The notes beneath the pieces were generated by a model. That model was not told the origin of the DNA. It made no database searches and saw only the letters and a list, made by a program, of their open reading frames with translations. This document shows, one piece after another, positions 2,027-48,344 of a stretch of DNA of 64,000 nucleotides; within the stretch, counting starts at the first letter, position 1; every line of letters begins with the position of its first letter. The DNA comes from Tubulanus polymorphus. Lineage: Eukaryota > Nemertea > Palaeonemertea > Tubulaniformes > Tubulanidae. Location: positions 11,475,001 through 11,539,000 of the forward strand of contig NC_134025.1 of the NCBI RefSeq assembly GCF_964204645.1. The letters run 5' to 3'. Both the position numbers and the translations under genes were made by a program.

Positions 2027-4402
2027 TAAAGTTTTACCTATTTCATATATCTCCACCTTTGGCAGAGACTGTCAGACACTAATTAGCAAGCATTGTTGCA
2101 AAACATTGGCAGGTGAGATTTGACGACGTTTTTGAAAATGGCTCGTCGAAACGTCGATATCCTCGTACTGTTTTTCTTCGATTACGGGCTTTACTCGTCT
2201 CGTATGAATTCGACATACATGATTTGTCAATGAAAAACCAAACAATCAGATTTGCCCTTCGATCAAAAATCATTCACTCAATTAACCGTTATTCCCGAAA
2301 GATATTTCCGTGCGTGTTCATAACTATGAAAATCTAGTCGATGCTGCGCGCGCGCGGCACTTGTCATCAATATCCTACACTAGGTAAAACATTACACCTA
2401 CATTCGTATTGCGTATCCCATCACTCATGCATACTTAGCTCCATAAATAGTTATTTATGCGGCGATTTTTATCGTCAGTGTCGGTGGTAGATTCATTCAG
2501 TCTTCGATTTTCTAGATTGATGATGGAATCGTGGTAAATTTCAATATGTACCTGCATTCAGCAGTACTGTTGGTTGGAATCAAATTTTCTTATCGACGAC
2601 TCCCAACATACGCTCTGTTTTTGCTTATCTCCGGGTCCTGGCAGAAACTACGTAACTGGCCCTTGAATCACAGGGAACACGAGACAATTTGACATTAAGA
2701 CCATGCTTCCTCATTTCGATCAACACTTTATTTAGTTATAGCAACCTATACAAAAATCATCTCGAAAATGTAATATGTAATAGATGTAACAAATTGAAGA
2801 TGGGATCATGTGATAATACAAGGTAGTTAATTGAGTCTGGGGGGAGCATATTTAACCAAGTGGGCATGGTGTCCCTGGACTTCTAGTTGATATTGCTCTC
2901 ATGGCACATTGTTGCAATTTTGTGAAATAAATTTTGCTTGACCAACAACTTGAGATTTGCAAGGTCGTTGAAGATGGGTGAACTATTTTAAAACAAACAT
3001 TACAAATACTTAATAGTTTGTTGAAAGAGAAAAAAACCGACCCAACAATACAGCAAAAAGTGTCCTAACAAAAAGGCTGCACAACCATTGTAAAATGGTC
3101 GTTTACATGTTTTCCTGCAAAGGAAGAAATGGAATCTGGCAAGTTGACCTTACTGACCGCAGTGAAAAATAATATTCCCATTTGTTTTGCCGAACACATT
3201 TGTTGTTTTGTTTCATTTTTTCTTTATGGAATATTACGCTCTTAGACGTCATAGATATATAAATAGAATTGCGGAGTGGGCGAGAGCCGACAAACGAGAT
3301 ATCACTTAAACTAATCTTAAGTAACGTTGTTACATGTTTTCATCTCCCAATGGAGTTCATTTGAATGACATATGGCGGCACGTCACGTCGGTAATGGACT
3401 GCTCATAGATTACATATACAACGCAAACCGATACCCTTCGAAAGAGTCACAGCCGGAGAGAGAGAGCGAGAGATAGCTGCATGCTACGCGCTCTAGAGTG
3501 GATGGTGAGGGATGGTTGCCTAGCAATGCACACTGTCGTCGTAGTTGATCAATCACATTTCTATTGATGTCATTAGAAGTTGCAATCGTTACCGCACTCC
3601 CTCTGATTTCGGCCCGTTTATACGAACGTGTGAATTCGCATGCATAGATGGCATGTTCGGAAAAAATCCGTATTCTTTCCTAAGCATTTTTCGGGATGGT
3701 TTTTCGTTAGAAACTTAAGTAAAGACATTTAATCGAAGACGTTTAAAGAGGGTTTCAGTTAATGTGATATACACCTGCTTTTGTTCGTTATCTGTAGGTA
3801 ATTGAAAGGATATCTTAGAATCTAGGATTTTTTTTCGCAAAATTTATGATTTATTTCGTGTTGGATGTCCACTCCATGCCATGGAATTTTTCCTTCACGC
3901 ATGGCAGTTGATTCCCTGAAAATTGGCAAACAACTTGGAATTTTACCAAAATTTTGTCTTCACGAATTTTATAGTTTTTTTTCCTCATTTGTGTTGAAAG
4001 CTACCCCCAAATTACAAGTAGACCGTTCTGTATTGAGGACTCAAAGGACTAGATATAAAGACTTCTCCCCCTTTGATATGTATACTAGTTATCATTCATG
4101 ACATTGAATATATATTTTCACGCATATGTATGTGTAAGGTCATTGTCAAATAAAAACTATGTGTACGACCTTAATATTCATTGTAATTCTTTCATCAATA
4201 ACAGCTACAACATCTGTTCTGCTATGATTGGATTGTGTTTGACAGCATTTATGATGATGACTAGGTTAGTCGTTCTGTTAACCGACCCTCTTGATTAGTT
4301 CATTTTTATCTGATCGTCAAATCTTGATGATCGGTTAATGGTGGCGGGGACAAAATGTGCGCTCAGACAAATATACGATGATGTAACGATATCAGAGAAT
4401 TT
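2027..4402. other. Intergenic, no gene recognised
   Basis: No coding exon is recognised. The one structured signal is the core-promoter-like block at 3246-3266, listed separately. A GA-rich run (gagagagagcgagag) lies at about 3456-3470. Confidence 0.4.
3246..3266 (+). promoter_or_regulatory. CRE-half site plus TATA box candidate
   Basis: ACGTCA (3246-3251) is followed five bases later by TATATAAATAG (3256-3266), a near-ideal TATA box. GC-richer sequence follows at the distance where transcription would start. It could be an upstream promoter of the synaptotagmin gene, a non-coding transcript, or chance. No exon can be tied to it from sequence alone. Confidence 0.35.
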
Positions 4403-6452: not shown

Positions 6453-7648
6453 TACTTTACACCTTTACATATAACAGAAAATCAATGTTTCTTCTAGACC
6501 CTAAACTCAAAATAAACTCGGATATCGTAACCTTACAATTTGGCTATTGATTCCCAAATCTACGACAGACGATCTGCGATCGATTTAAGTCGATTTGCCC
6601 CGCCTGTAAAAGCAGAATTTTAAAAATCGCTTAATCGGTCTGGTACTTCGATTATCAGTGTTATCGTCTTATTGGCGATTCGTAACGTCGGTGGCACCAC
6701 GGCGGACACTATGCCGTTTTTCGTTTAAATGATAAAAAAATCTTAGATCGAGACATCGATCAGTCCGATCAGAGGTTTACGATGCCCGGATAGCTTATAA
6801 GTAATAAAGGTAAAAGCCGACGTCCGTTTTTGACTTATATATTGGCTTATATCGTAGTCAGTGTTTACATGTGACCCTTCTGGACGGAGGTAAAAGTTAC
6901 GTAGGTAATTCGACAATCACATTACTTGTAGGATCGCTAGTGCTTTCAGGTAATCAGGTAATGAAGAGTTGTTTTATGAAGTCTCGATAAGAATTGAATC
7001 GTAAATCCACCAGTTTTTCATTCAGATAATTCAGAAGGTATGCTTTGATTTTCGCACCTAAAGCAATATAATGAACTCTTTTATCGTAATCTTTTGATGG
7101 CGGAAATATTACAGTAAAGTTTTCCGAGAATAAGGAATCAATTTTATCTACGCCCCGAGCTCATCTCATGATATTACAGACTTCTGACAAACCCAACTAC
7201 TATCACTACTACTATTTGAGAGTAGTTCAACTCTGTGAAAAGTTCAATTACTTTTTGAAATTTGAAAAACGAATACTTGAAGACAAATCGGACGATTTCT
7301 ATTGAATTATCTTTTAAAAAGATGAACATTTTTAAAAAGATTTAAAATTATCTTTTTAAGACCCGTAAGGAGAGGAAACTGCTACGAATGGATATGTCAT
7401 TTTCAACTCGAAGCGGCGCATCAGTTTCGATTATCTCATTTTCAAAAAATTCAACAAATAAAAGTCGCTCGCAAGCTCCAAGCTGTAGGGTTATATTCCA
7501 ATATGTCCATCGTCATTCCTGGTTTCTCTCGATCATCGTAACCATGGTAATTAGTTTTTCAGCTCGCAGGTTCTTCAAGTCGTCTATGCTATGAAACTAG
7601 ATGTGTTTCCTAAGTGTATTTTGACTGTCATGAGAACCGTATCGAAAC
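6453..7648. other. Intron or intergenic, nothing recognised
   Basis: If the 6042-6119 exon belongs to synaptotagmin, this is the start of its roughly 12-kb first intron. No gene or clear repeat end is seen. Confidence 0.35.
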
Positions 7649-7922
7649 TCATTTCATACAATAAGATAAAAACCCACTATTTACAAATTAAAAGAAATCT
7701 AAAATCGAGAATTTATTAATTGAAACACTAGAGATCATCACCTGACGATGATCTCTAGTGTGAGATCGAAACGTCGTGTTCTTATATTTTAGATTGTTTT
7801 TTAGATTGTTTGATTAATAAATTCTCGATTTTAGATTTCTTTTAATTTGTAAATAGTGGGTTTTTATCTTATCATCTGTTCACCACGTTTGAGTGTGGTA
7901 ATCGTACCATCATTTCATACAA
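7649..7922 (+). mobile_element. Foldback element carrying a hammerhead-like core
   Basis: A perfect 59-bp inverted repeat occupies 7662-7720 and 7813-7871. The 13-base direct repeat TCATTTCATACAA lies at 7649-7661, abutting the left arm exactly, and again at 7910-7922. It therefore looks like a target-site duplication around an inserted unit at 7662-7909. Between the arms is the hammerhead-like motif described separately. A long duplication fits reverse-transcription-based insertion better than most cut-and-paste elements. Penelope-like elements and retrozymes are known animal retroelements that carry hammerhead motifs; membership here is inferred. Confidence 0.65.
7742..7775 (+). ncRNA. Hammerhead ribozyme-like motif
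   Basis: CTGACGA (7742-7748) matches the conserved CUGANGA box. A stem follows: GATCTC (7750-7755), six-base loop, GAGATC (7762-7767). Next comes GAAA (7768-7771) and then CGTC, giving a GUC cleavage triplet at 7773-7775. Flanking CAC (7739-7741) and GTG (7776-7778) can form a short stem I. One unpaired T sits between the CUGANGA box and stem II. Stem III would be only the self-complementary ACGU, as in hammerheads that work as dimers. An alternative 14-bp hairpin (cactagagatcatc with gatgatctctagtg) competes with this fold. Activity is unproven. Confidence 0.5.
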
Positions 7923-7959
7923 CCGTTGATAAAAATGCTTTATCCGTGTGATGATAATG

Positions 7960-8153
7960 TGTGGAGAATCCCGCAGGCAATGATAATGAAAAAAAGTAAT
8001 ATGAAGTCGGAAAATGTTTGTTCGAGCTAGTATAGTAGTTTAGTAATCCTGAAGATGACTTTAAGAATAAAGTCAAAACAACGAATAAACTACTAGCTCA
8101 AGGAAACATTTTCAGACATATTACTTTTTTTGTTATTATTACGGGATTCTCTA
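7960..8153 (+). mobile_element. Second foldback element with degenerate hammerhead-like core
   Basis: Imperfect arms at about 7960-8042 and 8085-8153 share long matching stretches (AAAAAAAGTAATATG, AAAATGTTT, GAGCTAGTA, TAGTTTA in inverted order). The spacer holds CTGAAGA, a 7-bp stem with AGAA loop, and AAAA. The arms differ in sequence from the neighbouring element at 7662-7871, but the layout is the same. Confidence 0.55.
8049..8079 (+). ncRNA. Degenerate hammerhead-like motif
   Basis: CTGAAGA (8049-8055) fits CUGANGA. The stem GACTTTA/TAAAGTC (8057-8063 and 8068-8074) is perfect, with an AGAA loop. The invariant GAAA is AAAA (8075-8078), a G-to-A change at a catalytic-core position, so cleavage is not expected. 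It is best read as a decayed relative of the motif at 7742-7775. Confidence 0.35.
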
Positions 8154-9882
8154 CTCTTTTTCGTACGAACTAATTTGCGAATCTCGTATTCGCTGTCTTC
8201 TAAATAATTCTACTTTCCGTCGAACGTTATTCCGTCTATTTTACGTAACGAAGCCCGAATAAATGGAATATTCATATGTATGTGTGCATATGGCTTAACG
8301 ATATACGACGAATTAAGAAATCATTAATAATATATTGTGTACATGGTTCGGTATATAGCGGTTCAGTGGTCGTGTGTATGCGTGTATATATACGTATTGA
8401 TAGCGAGCGGTCCGCTGCGAAATATCGACGAATCCCAACTGCATCAGCATCAACGACAATGGCGGCCGCATTCGCACAATACTCTCGTCATCTCCTGAAT
8501 ATTGAATAAGTTCGTGATCGGATTCGGGCTGGTTGATAGTATTCGTTCGTATAGAATAGAAATGGCCTGTTCACGGTATTCGTTAGCGAGATGCTCGGTG
8601 TTCGTCATTACCGAATACGAGAGAATAAACCTAGTTGAATACGGCAACGTTAGTCTTAGAAATCGAGCACGTGCTGTGGTTCAATGAAGGGCAGTTCTTT
8701 TTCAAGAAAGAAAAGGGGGTTACTAATCTATTGATGACACAAAAAGAGGTTCTTTGAATACCTCCCCTATTCTGCACCTTGCTCAATGATGAATCTTTAT
8801 GAACTCTAATCATATGAAGGCAGTTATTTCTCATATTTTTTGCGTGTAAGCTACTGGGTTTTAATGGGGAGGTGCTCAGTGTTCAGGTGAATTAGTTCCA
8901 TGACTCCTACACTAGGAATTTTAGTCTTGCAAATAATTTGTTGATTGACACTATTTAGTATAGCCAAATCTCAGCCACGTCTACTGATATGTCAAGCTTT
9001 GTATGAATATTATAGGTTTTTTCGTTCGCTGTCTGTGAAAAGATGTATTTCTATTTTTCACCAAAGTTAAAAACATTCGTGACAAGTTATCCGACAGAAA
9101 TATTACAAATTTTCGAATGTCATTCGGCCTATTATCAATCGATGAATAACCACTTATTACGGATTGTGTTCGGTTAATGAGGCAATCGTGAGGACAGCTG
9201 GAAACGTTCCTATTGTTTCCGTTTGAAACCGTTTCAACGACATCATTTTTTTTTGTTTTTATCCGTGGTTTTAATGACAGGAATTAAGTTATCTGGTTAC
9301 TGAAAACTGGATTTCCATGTTGGTCAATGTTGACAAATTTGGATGATGTTTCAGTCCGTCAAGGCTTTCTATTCATGTCTGTACGCTATGCACGTAGATC
9401 AAGAGGGTACCCAATAGTAAAGTTCCTCTACCCAATCGTAAAGTTCCAGATACTTTCAAATACTTTTGTAAACAAATTATTCCCGCGTGTCTGATGGGTA
9501 TTCTTCCATAAACGTGAGTGAGAAAGAGAAGATAACCTTGTAAAAATTTAGAGCAAAAATATTTGTAAGGAGAGATGGCAGTTTACTATGGCAGTTGAAG
9601 ATTCTGACGAACTGATGTCTGTCAAACTTACCCGTGTCTAGCCGTCTGTCAGGATTGGACGGAATTTTTTTGCTTGGGAAGGGAAATTGTCCTTCAGCGC
9701 CCATTCAGGTGTATAAACACTTCGATTGATATAGATTACCTATATGGTAAACAGATATGTCACCAATGCATAAAATGTTTACATAGCATGTAGGGAACTT
9801 TGACTCGCCTAGAAAATATGTGTAGGCGGGCATCTCACGTGTGTTAATAGTTCATATTTCGACTCATATTGGAAATAGTACT
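8154..9882. other. Non-coding stretch, nothing recognised
   Basis: No exon, RNA gene or transposon end is recognised. A CpG-richer patch lies near 8395-8480. Confidence 0.35.

Positions 9883-18389: not shown

Positions 18390-31849
<13,460 letters not shown>

Positions 31850-45424: not shown

Positions 45425-48344
<2,920 letters not shown>

What the first reader, a model, noticed from the sequence alone, without database searches (positions are those of the whole stretch)
7649..7922. Mobile foldback element with a hammerhead ribozyme core at its apex
A perfect 59-bp inverted repeat surrounds CTGACGA, a 6-bp stem, GAAA and CGTC, which fits the hammerhead core. The unit is framed by a 13-bp direct repeat that abuts the left arm exactly. 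Penelope-like elements and retrozymes in animals are known to carry hammerheads. A core held between long perfect arms is unusual and could be a separate non-autonomous class that spreads through a self-cleaving RNA. The palindromic ACGT at stem III suggests cleavage as a dimer.
Basis: partly seen in the sequence, partly recalled or inferred. Interest (0 to 1): 0.78.

Follow-up and report, generated by a model that had tools for sequence, protein, structure and literature searches.

The report
Paired ends of a Penelope retrotransposon
The hairpin is a short insertion left by a Penelope-like retrotransposon: two head-to-head copies of the element's end, which carries a small hammerhead ribozyme; it is of a known kind, but its many relatives in this genome bear on the open question of how such inverted insertions form.

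Summary
In detail: 60-bp perfect arms, a hammerhead-like core, a 13-bp direct repeat. The core pattern has 1310 genomic matches against 23 for its reversed control, and stem II covaries. It is not a separate foldback class. Between right arm and right repeat lies a 37-nt stem-loop, the Penelope 'tail'. The same core, arm and tail follow RT/GIY-YIG coding pieces. So the foldback is a truncated, head-to-head pair of Penelope pseudo-LTR ends. Related copies have 10-16 bp target duplications (32 of 61 loci; control 16 of 1195), 25 of 25 different apex junctions, and a tail on exactly one end in 23 of 23 arm pairs and 3 of 3 multi-kb head-to-head insertions checked. Arm 5' ends cluster at a predicted transcription start just before the core (29 of 57), none at the hammerhead cut (0 of 57). 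Best explanation: both target strands prime reverse transcription of uncleaved RNA from two start sites; the ribozyme sits at the apex because the RNA begins there. Spread through self-cleaved RNA is not supported. Known kind; the mechanism is the interesting part.

The parts
7649..7661 (.). target-site duplication, left copy (TCATTTCATACAA)
   Evidence: exact 13-bp repeat; 32 of 61 tail-anchored loci have a repeat of at least 10 bp in this geometry, swapped-flank control 16 of 1195
7661..7720 (-). left arm: antisense copy of the pseudo-LTR unit, starting at the tail-less reverse-transcription start
   Evidence: 60-nt perfect complement of 7813-7872; aligned to the unit of L035, 65 of 68
7725..7739 (-). 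rest of the left arm: antisense piece of the core region, joined to the outer arm across an internal deletion (by eye)
   Evidence: 15-bp perfect complement of 7747-7761
7742..7775 (+). minimal type I hammerhead core (CUGACGA, extra U, stem II 7750-7755 / 7762-7767, GAAACGUC; predicted cut after 7775)
   Evidence: stem II covariation; model R1 E 1.8e-10, the same sequence being in the model
7776..7812 (+). inner part of the right pseudo-LTR unit, with a 12-bp tandem duplication at 7787-7811
   Evidence: Tandem Repeats Finder; alignment to L035 unit
7813..7872 (+). right arm: sense copy of the pseudo-LTR unit
   Evidence: alignment of the right unit -3 to 156, 152 of 170
7873..7909 (+). tail with stem-loop (CACCACGTTTGAGTGTGG), present on this end only
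   Evidence: 411 exact genomic copies of its core pattern, reversed control 0; one-tail rule
7910..7922 (.). target-site duplication, right copy

Best explanation
The feature is a short insertion of a Penelope-like retrotransposon (PLE): two 5'-complete or truncated copies of its pseudo-LTR end, joined head to head, with the element's hammerhead at the joint. Proposed working: (1) the PLE promoter (TATA at -31, TCA initiator) starts the RNA 4-7 nt before CUGANGA, so the hammerhead is the first thing on the RNA [inferred from TATA spacing and cDNA ends]. (2) The PLE protein (RT plus GIY-YIG nuclease) makes a staggered cut that leaves about 12-13 nt 3' ends, and both ends prime reverse transcription of the same kind of RNA [inferred; both-strand cleavage and extension is shown in vitro for another PLE]. 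(3) One strand starts after the tail stem-loop, the other before it, giving one tailed and one tail-less end [shown as a rule in the copies; starts inferred]. (4) Both cDNAs run towards the RNA 5' end, often reach it, and are joined at or near the hammerhead; the gap is filled, which duplicates the target [junctions shown, joining inferred]. (5) The template is uncleaved RNA [shown: arms cross the cut site, none begins there]. The foldback shape is a by-product of insertion.
For: Same core, arm and tail follow GIY-YIG/RT coding pieces in L035, L101 and L102; a 100-aa GIY-YIG piece from L035 matches many genomic places, 58-60% identical to frames of other PLE families; RVT_1 in L102, RVT_1 and GIY-YIG in L017 and L018. 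Target duplications in 32 of 61 loci, lengths 10-16, commonest 12. Tail on exactly one end: 23 of 23 class-1 pairs, 6 of 6 class-2/3 short copies in which both ends were found out of 29 loci, 3 of 3 multi-kb head-to-head PLE insertions with 12-, 14- and 13-bp duplications. Arm 5' ends at -7 to +5 in 29 of 57, expected 4.1 if uniform; 0 of 57 at +32 to +36. TATA at -31 from the initiator A in 20 of 21 cores, three families. Both arms of a copy agree at a diagnostic base in 23 of 23 and are closer to each other (0.043) than to other copies' arms (0.101), 0 of 2000 permutations. PMC11167929 (main text read): the Anolis PLE cuts and extends both strands, starts internally at two sites that bound the tail, and inserts without hammerhead cleavage.
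Against: No RNA data: the start site rests on TATA spacing and cDNA ends. The source PLE of this class was not seen intact: L101 frames are broken (at most 191 aa) and L102 has 547 aa and no intact tail at its arm; Pfam gives RVT_1 but no GIY-YIG for L102 at E 0.001. 29 of 61 loci had no duplication of 10 bp or more and were left out of the end counts. The own arm is the nearest or tied only in 12 of 28, and L026 has arms of different diagnostic type. Why exactly one tail is used each time is not explained by two independent choices of start site. Palindromes lose DNA at the apex after insertion, so some junctions may be later deletions.
Confidence: 0.8

Rival explanations
1. Self-priming: a single cDNA (or antisense RNA) folds back on itself and is copied, making the head-to-head repeat. 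This is what the Adineta vaga PLE authors preferred (PMC3846280, Discussion read).
For: Arms of one copy are alike; a palindrome marks many junctions; L060 and L051 arms are identical over the compared stretch.
Against: The tail is on one arm only in 23 of 23; in 14 of 25 copies the tail-less arm holds at least 10 nt of 5' unit sequence that the tailed arm lacks as aligned, so neither arm can be a copy of the other. By eye, 5 of these 14 (L043, L057, L062, L063, L072) have more right-arm sequence in the gap, joined across an internal deletion; the argument still holds for them, but later apex deletions could weaken it for any copy. The tail-less end is at one fixed place in the 23 pairs (selected for an intact arm end).
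Confidence: 0.12
2. A distinct non-autonomous foldback element that is transcribed and copied as a whole through a self-cleaving, perhaps circular RNA.
For: Hammerhead, size and target duplication resemble animal retrozymes of about 170-400 nt (PMC7229834, abstract seen).
Against: 25 of 25 distinct apex junctions; single-unit copies without left arm, L029, L033, L034, L047, L081; 0 of 57 ends at the cut site; multi-kb PLE copies end alike.
Confidence: 0.05
3. A DNA foldback transposon or MITE with long terminal inverted repeats.
For: Long perfect inverted repeat and direct repeat.
Against: Ends are asymmetric (tail on one side), one arm may be missing, duplications vary in length (10-16), and the unit follows RT-bearing reading frames.
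Confidence: 0.02

Closest known systems
Penelope/Poseidon-type PLE with GIY-YIG endonuclease (Adineta vaga Pen2a, PMC3846280; Anolis PAc, PMC11167929)
   Same: Pseudo-LTR with hammerhead (PAc), inverted pseudo-LTR completing the insert with an optional 31-bp tail on one of the inverted copies and short target duplications (A. vaga, passages seen); 30-40 bp tail between two internal RT start sites in an AC-rich stem loop, and extension of both strands (PAc, main text read).
   Different: Here the insert is reduced to the two pseudo-LTR ends; duplications are longer (10-16 against 8-10 bp in the A. vaga passages); one-tail rule and start-site clustering shown on many copies.
Minimal type I hammerhead variants of PLEs (Cervera and de la Pena 2014; Lunse et al. 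2017)
   Same: CUGANGA, stem II, GAAA and a near-absent stem III, in PLE pseudo-LTRs (passages of the review PMC7761336; both original papers not held, contents recalled).
   Different: All but a few motifs here carry an extra U after A9; whether this is described I could not check.
Animal retrozymes (PMC7229834)
   Same: Small mobile units with type I hammerheads.
   Different: Those occur as tandem units and circular RNAs (abstract seen; passages of PMC7761336); these copies are head to head, end at a predicted start site, not at the cut site.

Membership tests
Penelope-like element (truncated copy) | RT plus GIY-YIG reading frame in the family that carries the same ends | tested here: met
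   GIY-YIG-like coding piece directly upstream of core, arm and tail in L035; RVT_1 in the 547-aa frame of L102, no Pfam GIY-YIG hit there at E 0.001; its L035-like piece is 96% identical. No intact class-1 frame seen.
Penelope-like element (truncated copy) | 30-40 bp tail with stem loop, on one end | tested here: met
   37 nt, one end in 23 of 23 pairs; stem loop in the fold
Penelope-like element (truncated copy) | short target-site duplications | tested here: met
   32 of 61 loci, control 16 of 1195
Penelope-like element (truncated copy) | hammerhead in the pseudo-LTR | tested here: met
   three PLE families with cores next to RT/GIY-YIG frames
Hammerhead ribozyme, type I minimal | conserved core CUGANGA ... 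GAAA with helix II | tested here: met
   87.9% of cells paired against 68.1 shuffled, covariation 0.677 against 0.308, 0 of 500; slid versions at most 0.257. Two measures do not exceed shuffles: pairs changed on both sides (152 of 500), further pair types (338 of 500)
Hammerhead ribozyme, type I minimal | helix I closed by the flanks | tested here: met
   4, 6 and 3 bp with different sequences in three families
Hammerhead ribozyme, type I minimal | match to an Rfam hammerhead model | tested here: not met
   such minimal variants may lie outside those models (recalled)
Hammerhead ribozyme, type I minimal | self-cleavage | not testable with these tools
   needs RNA in vitro
Retrozyme | unit bounded by hammerhead cuts, tandem copies, circular RNA | tested here: not met
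   0 of 57 arm ends at +32 to +36; tandem arrangement and circular RNA were not counted or not testable
Foldback DNA transposon / MITE | both ends defined by the inverted repeat | tested here: not met
   tail on one end only; single-armed copies

The most novel reading that the evidence does not exclude
PLE insertion is an obligatory two-strand reaction on one RNA: a protein dimer sits on the tail stem-loop, one subunit primes from the top strand on one side of the loop and the other from the bottom strand on the other side. This gives exactly one tail, same-source arms, a 12-13 bp duplication and a head-to-head insert whatever its length, and the hammerhead is simply the capped 5' end of the RNA, uncut until after insertion. 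The dimer and single-RNA steps are inference; the one-tail rule and the ends are data.
Probability: 0.4. Interest if true: 0.72.

Novelty: new member of a known kind. Interest (0 to 1): 0.5.

Why it matters
How PLEs insert head to head is open: self-priming on an antisense template was proposed (PMC3846280), and the later enzyme study left the steps after first-strand synthesis unvalidated (PMC11167929). This genome holds hundreds of short copies of one class (arm ends 962, arm end plus tail 409), so the two models can be told apart by the ends alone. It also suggests that the hammerhead is at the RNA's 5' end and is not needed for, nor used before, reverse transcription.

Tried and rejected
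Rfam searches gave no hammerhead; MIR8562 and similar matches are far below their gathering scores and reflect a long hairpin. An autonomous partner was first sought among GIY-YIG hits; those belong to other PLE families, and the class-1 partner was found through L035. RVT_1 listed 150 places and was not followed. Template use of hammerhead-cleaved RNA was considered and rejected (0 of 57). A foldback copied as a unit was considered and rejected (25 distinct junctions of 25). Papers: seven searches; in their listings I saw no paper that derives PLE head-to-head copies from two-strand priming, but only listings and the named passages were seen, and many journals are not held. Empty sites were not searched. 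The organism was not identified.

Rows left out: the 61 tail-anchored loci are the window copy and 60 of the 100 places listed (of 411); 29 of 61 without a duplication of at least 10 bp were dropped from end counts. In one search the left-arm alignments of L029, L033, L034, L035, L047, L069 and L081 (9-12 nt) were dropped as spurious, and L077 was added to the 24 copies flagged as inverted. L047 is entered as aligned (+48), though by eye it begins at +2. The 23 pairs come from the first 100 of 962 places. One search used 28 copies whose arms both cover unit 62-112, some of them chosen by similarity or by core.

Full report
What is there. The window (G000:C1:11475001-11539000) holds at 7649-7922 a 60-bp perfect inverted repeat (7661-7720 / 7813-7872), a 15-bp inner inverted repeat (7725-7739 / 7747-7761), a core CTGACGA-U-GATCTC-TAGTGT-GAGATC-GAAACGTC (7742-7775) and a 13-bp direct repeat. 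The right copy of the direct repeat is separated from the right arm by 37 nt with a stem-loop.

The core. CTGANGA-N5-30-GAAACGTC has 662+648 matches in the genome, the reversed pattern 15+8. The printed matches fall into three main sequence classes: CTGACGATGATCTC (this one), CTGATGATGGCTAA and CTGAAGATGACTAT. On 33 distinct 34-nt motifs copied from the printed list, stem II pairs in 87.9% of cells (shuffled 68.1) with covariation 0.677 (shuffled 0.308, 0 of 500; slid versions at most 0.257); two of the five measures do not exceed the shuffles. Stem I pairs with different sequences in three families: 4, 6 and 3 bp. Nearly all motifs have an extra U between A9 and stem II (column 8 at least 90%). 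Rfam hammerhead models do not match.

The copies. The tail core GTTCACCACGTTTGAGTGTGGTNATCG has 199+212 exact genomic matches, reversed control 0. Of 61 tail-anchored loci, 32 have a direct repeat of 10-16 bp (commonest 12) around the unit; with right flanks swapped between loci, 16 of 1195 do. Of these 32, I count 25 with an antisense left arm that begins at the same point (24 flagged, L077 added by eye), five single units (L029, L033, L034, L047, L081) and two with longer upstream sequence (L035, L069).

The source. L035 runs from GIY-YIG-like coding sequence into the core, arm and tail. Its 100-aa piece matches many genomic places, up to 96% identical in other copies and 58-60% in frames of other PLE families (150 of 783 candidates scored). 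L101 carries this in tandem units of about 4.5 kb with broken frames; L102 has a 547-aa frame with RT (RVT_1), followed by TATA, core and arm, but not by an intact tail. Two further PLE families have 817-841 aa frames flanked by their own hammerhead classes, in tandem and head to head. So the foldback is a PLE insertion cut down to two pseudo-LTR ends.

Ends and junctions. With 0 at the C of CTGACGA, 13 of 32 right arms and 16 of 25 left arms begin at -7 to +5 (29 of 57; 4.1 expected if uniform over -60 to +120); none begins at +32 to +36, where a hammerhead-cut RNA would begin; the nearest are +31 (L040) and +29 (L063). A TATA-like box begins 31 nt before the A of the last TCA in 20 of 21 cores of three families (L102: 29), that A being at -4 (class 1) or -7 (classes 2, 3). 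I read this as the RNA 5' end. All 25 apex junctions differ.

One tail per insert. In 23 of 23 arm pairs the tail is on exactly one end (scores 21-31 against at most 7 on the other; random flanks at most 9). Short class-2/3 copies with both ends found: 6 of 6 (of 29 loci). Multi-kb head-to-head PLE insertions on C12, C5 and C2: 3 of 3, with 12-, 14- and 13-bp duplications. Genome-wide, 409 of 962 intact arm ends are followed by the tail start.

Same source. The two arms agree at a diagnostic base in 23 of 23 pairs; their mean distance is 0.043 against 0.101 to other copies' arms, lower than any of 2000 permutations, though the own arm is nearest or tied only in 12 of 28. L026 is an exception with arms of different type.

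Mechanism. Two 3' ends of a staggered cut, each extended on the same kind of RNA, explain the orientation, the duplication, the fixed ends and the single tail. PMC11167929 (main text read) shows for the Anolis PLE that both strands are cut and extended, that synthesis starts at two internal sites which bound the tail, and that hammerhead mutants insert normally. Self-priming of one cDNA (preferred in PMC3846280, Discussion read) cannot give a tail on one arm together with extra 5' sequence on the other, as aligned in 14 of 25 copies, though later apex deletions could mimic part of this.

The ribozyme in this copy. The best fold of 7661-7909 puts CUGACGA in a loop over the 15-bp hairpin. Forcing the hammerhead costs 13.2 kcal/mol here and 59.3 in L036, but 5.6 in three single units. 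So the arms are more likely to silence the core than to serve it; this is a secondary-structure estimate only.

Verdict. Observation confirmed; hammerhead and mobility supported; separate class and spread by self-cleaved RNA not supported. New member of a known kind, with data that bear on an open question about PLE insertion.

Noticed in passing
window 7921-8175: A second, older foldback of PLE class 3 lies directly beside the first: core-like 8049-8082 (CTGAAGATGAC...AAAACAAC, model R1 E 2.7e-4), arms 7989-8032 / 8091-8134 and 7953-7973 / 8142-8162, and by eye a decayed tail at its left end (score 14, equal to the background maximum).
   Followed up: partly
window 7648-7661 / 7909-7922 / 8163-8175: The class-1 insert sits exactly at the tail end of the class-3 foldback; the flank CTCATTTCATAC resembles CTCTTTTTCGTAC at the other end of the class-3 copy, perhaps its worn target duplication, so two PLEs may have used the same site.
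   Followed up: no
L017, L018, L101: PLE copies with identical-looking tandem units, some head to head, with long open frames of 817 and 833 aa in L017 and L018, suggest recent activity in this genome.
   Followed up: partly
unit RNA of class 1 (L083, L101, L029): GACG of the core can pair with CGUC of the cut site, so the best fold of the single unit is an extended hairpin 5.6 kcal/mol below the hammerhead fold.
   Followed up: no
window 2132-2155 and 21561-21585: Weak core-like matches ending in CGAAACGUC (E 0.4 and 1.2).
   Followed up: no
window 47232-48344 and 28946-29467: A beta-tubulin-like open frame of 370 aa and a C2-domain-like piece (named by eye), pointing to an animal host.
   Followed up: no
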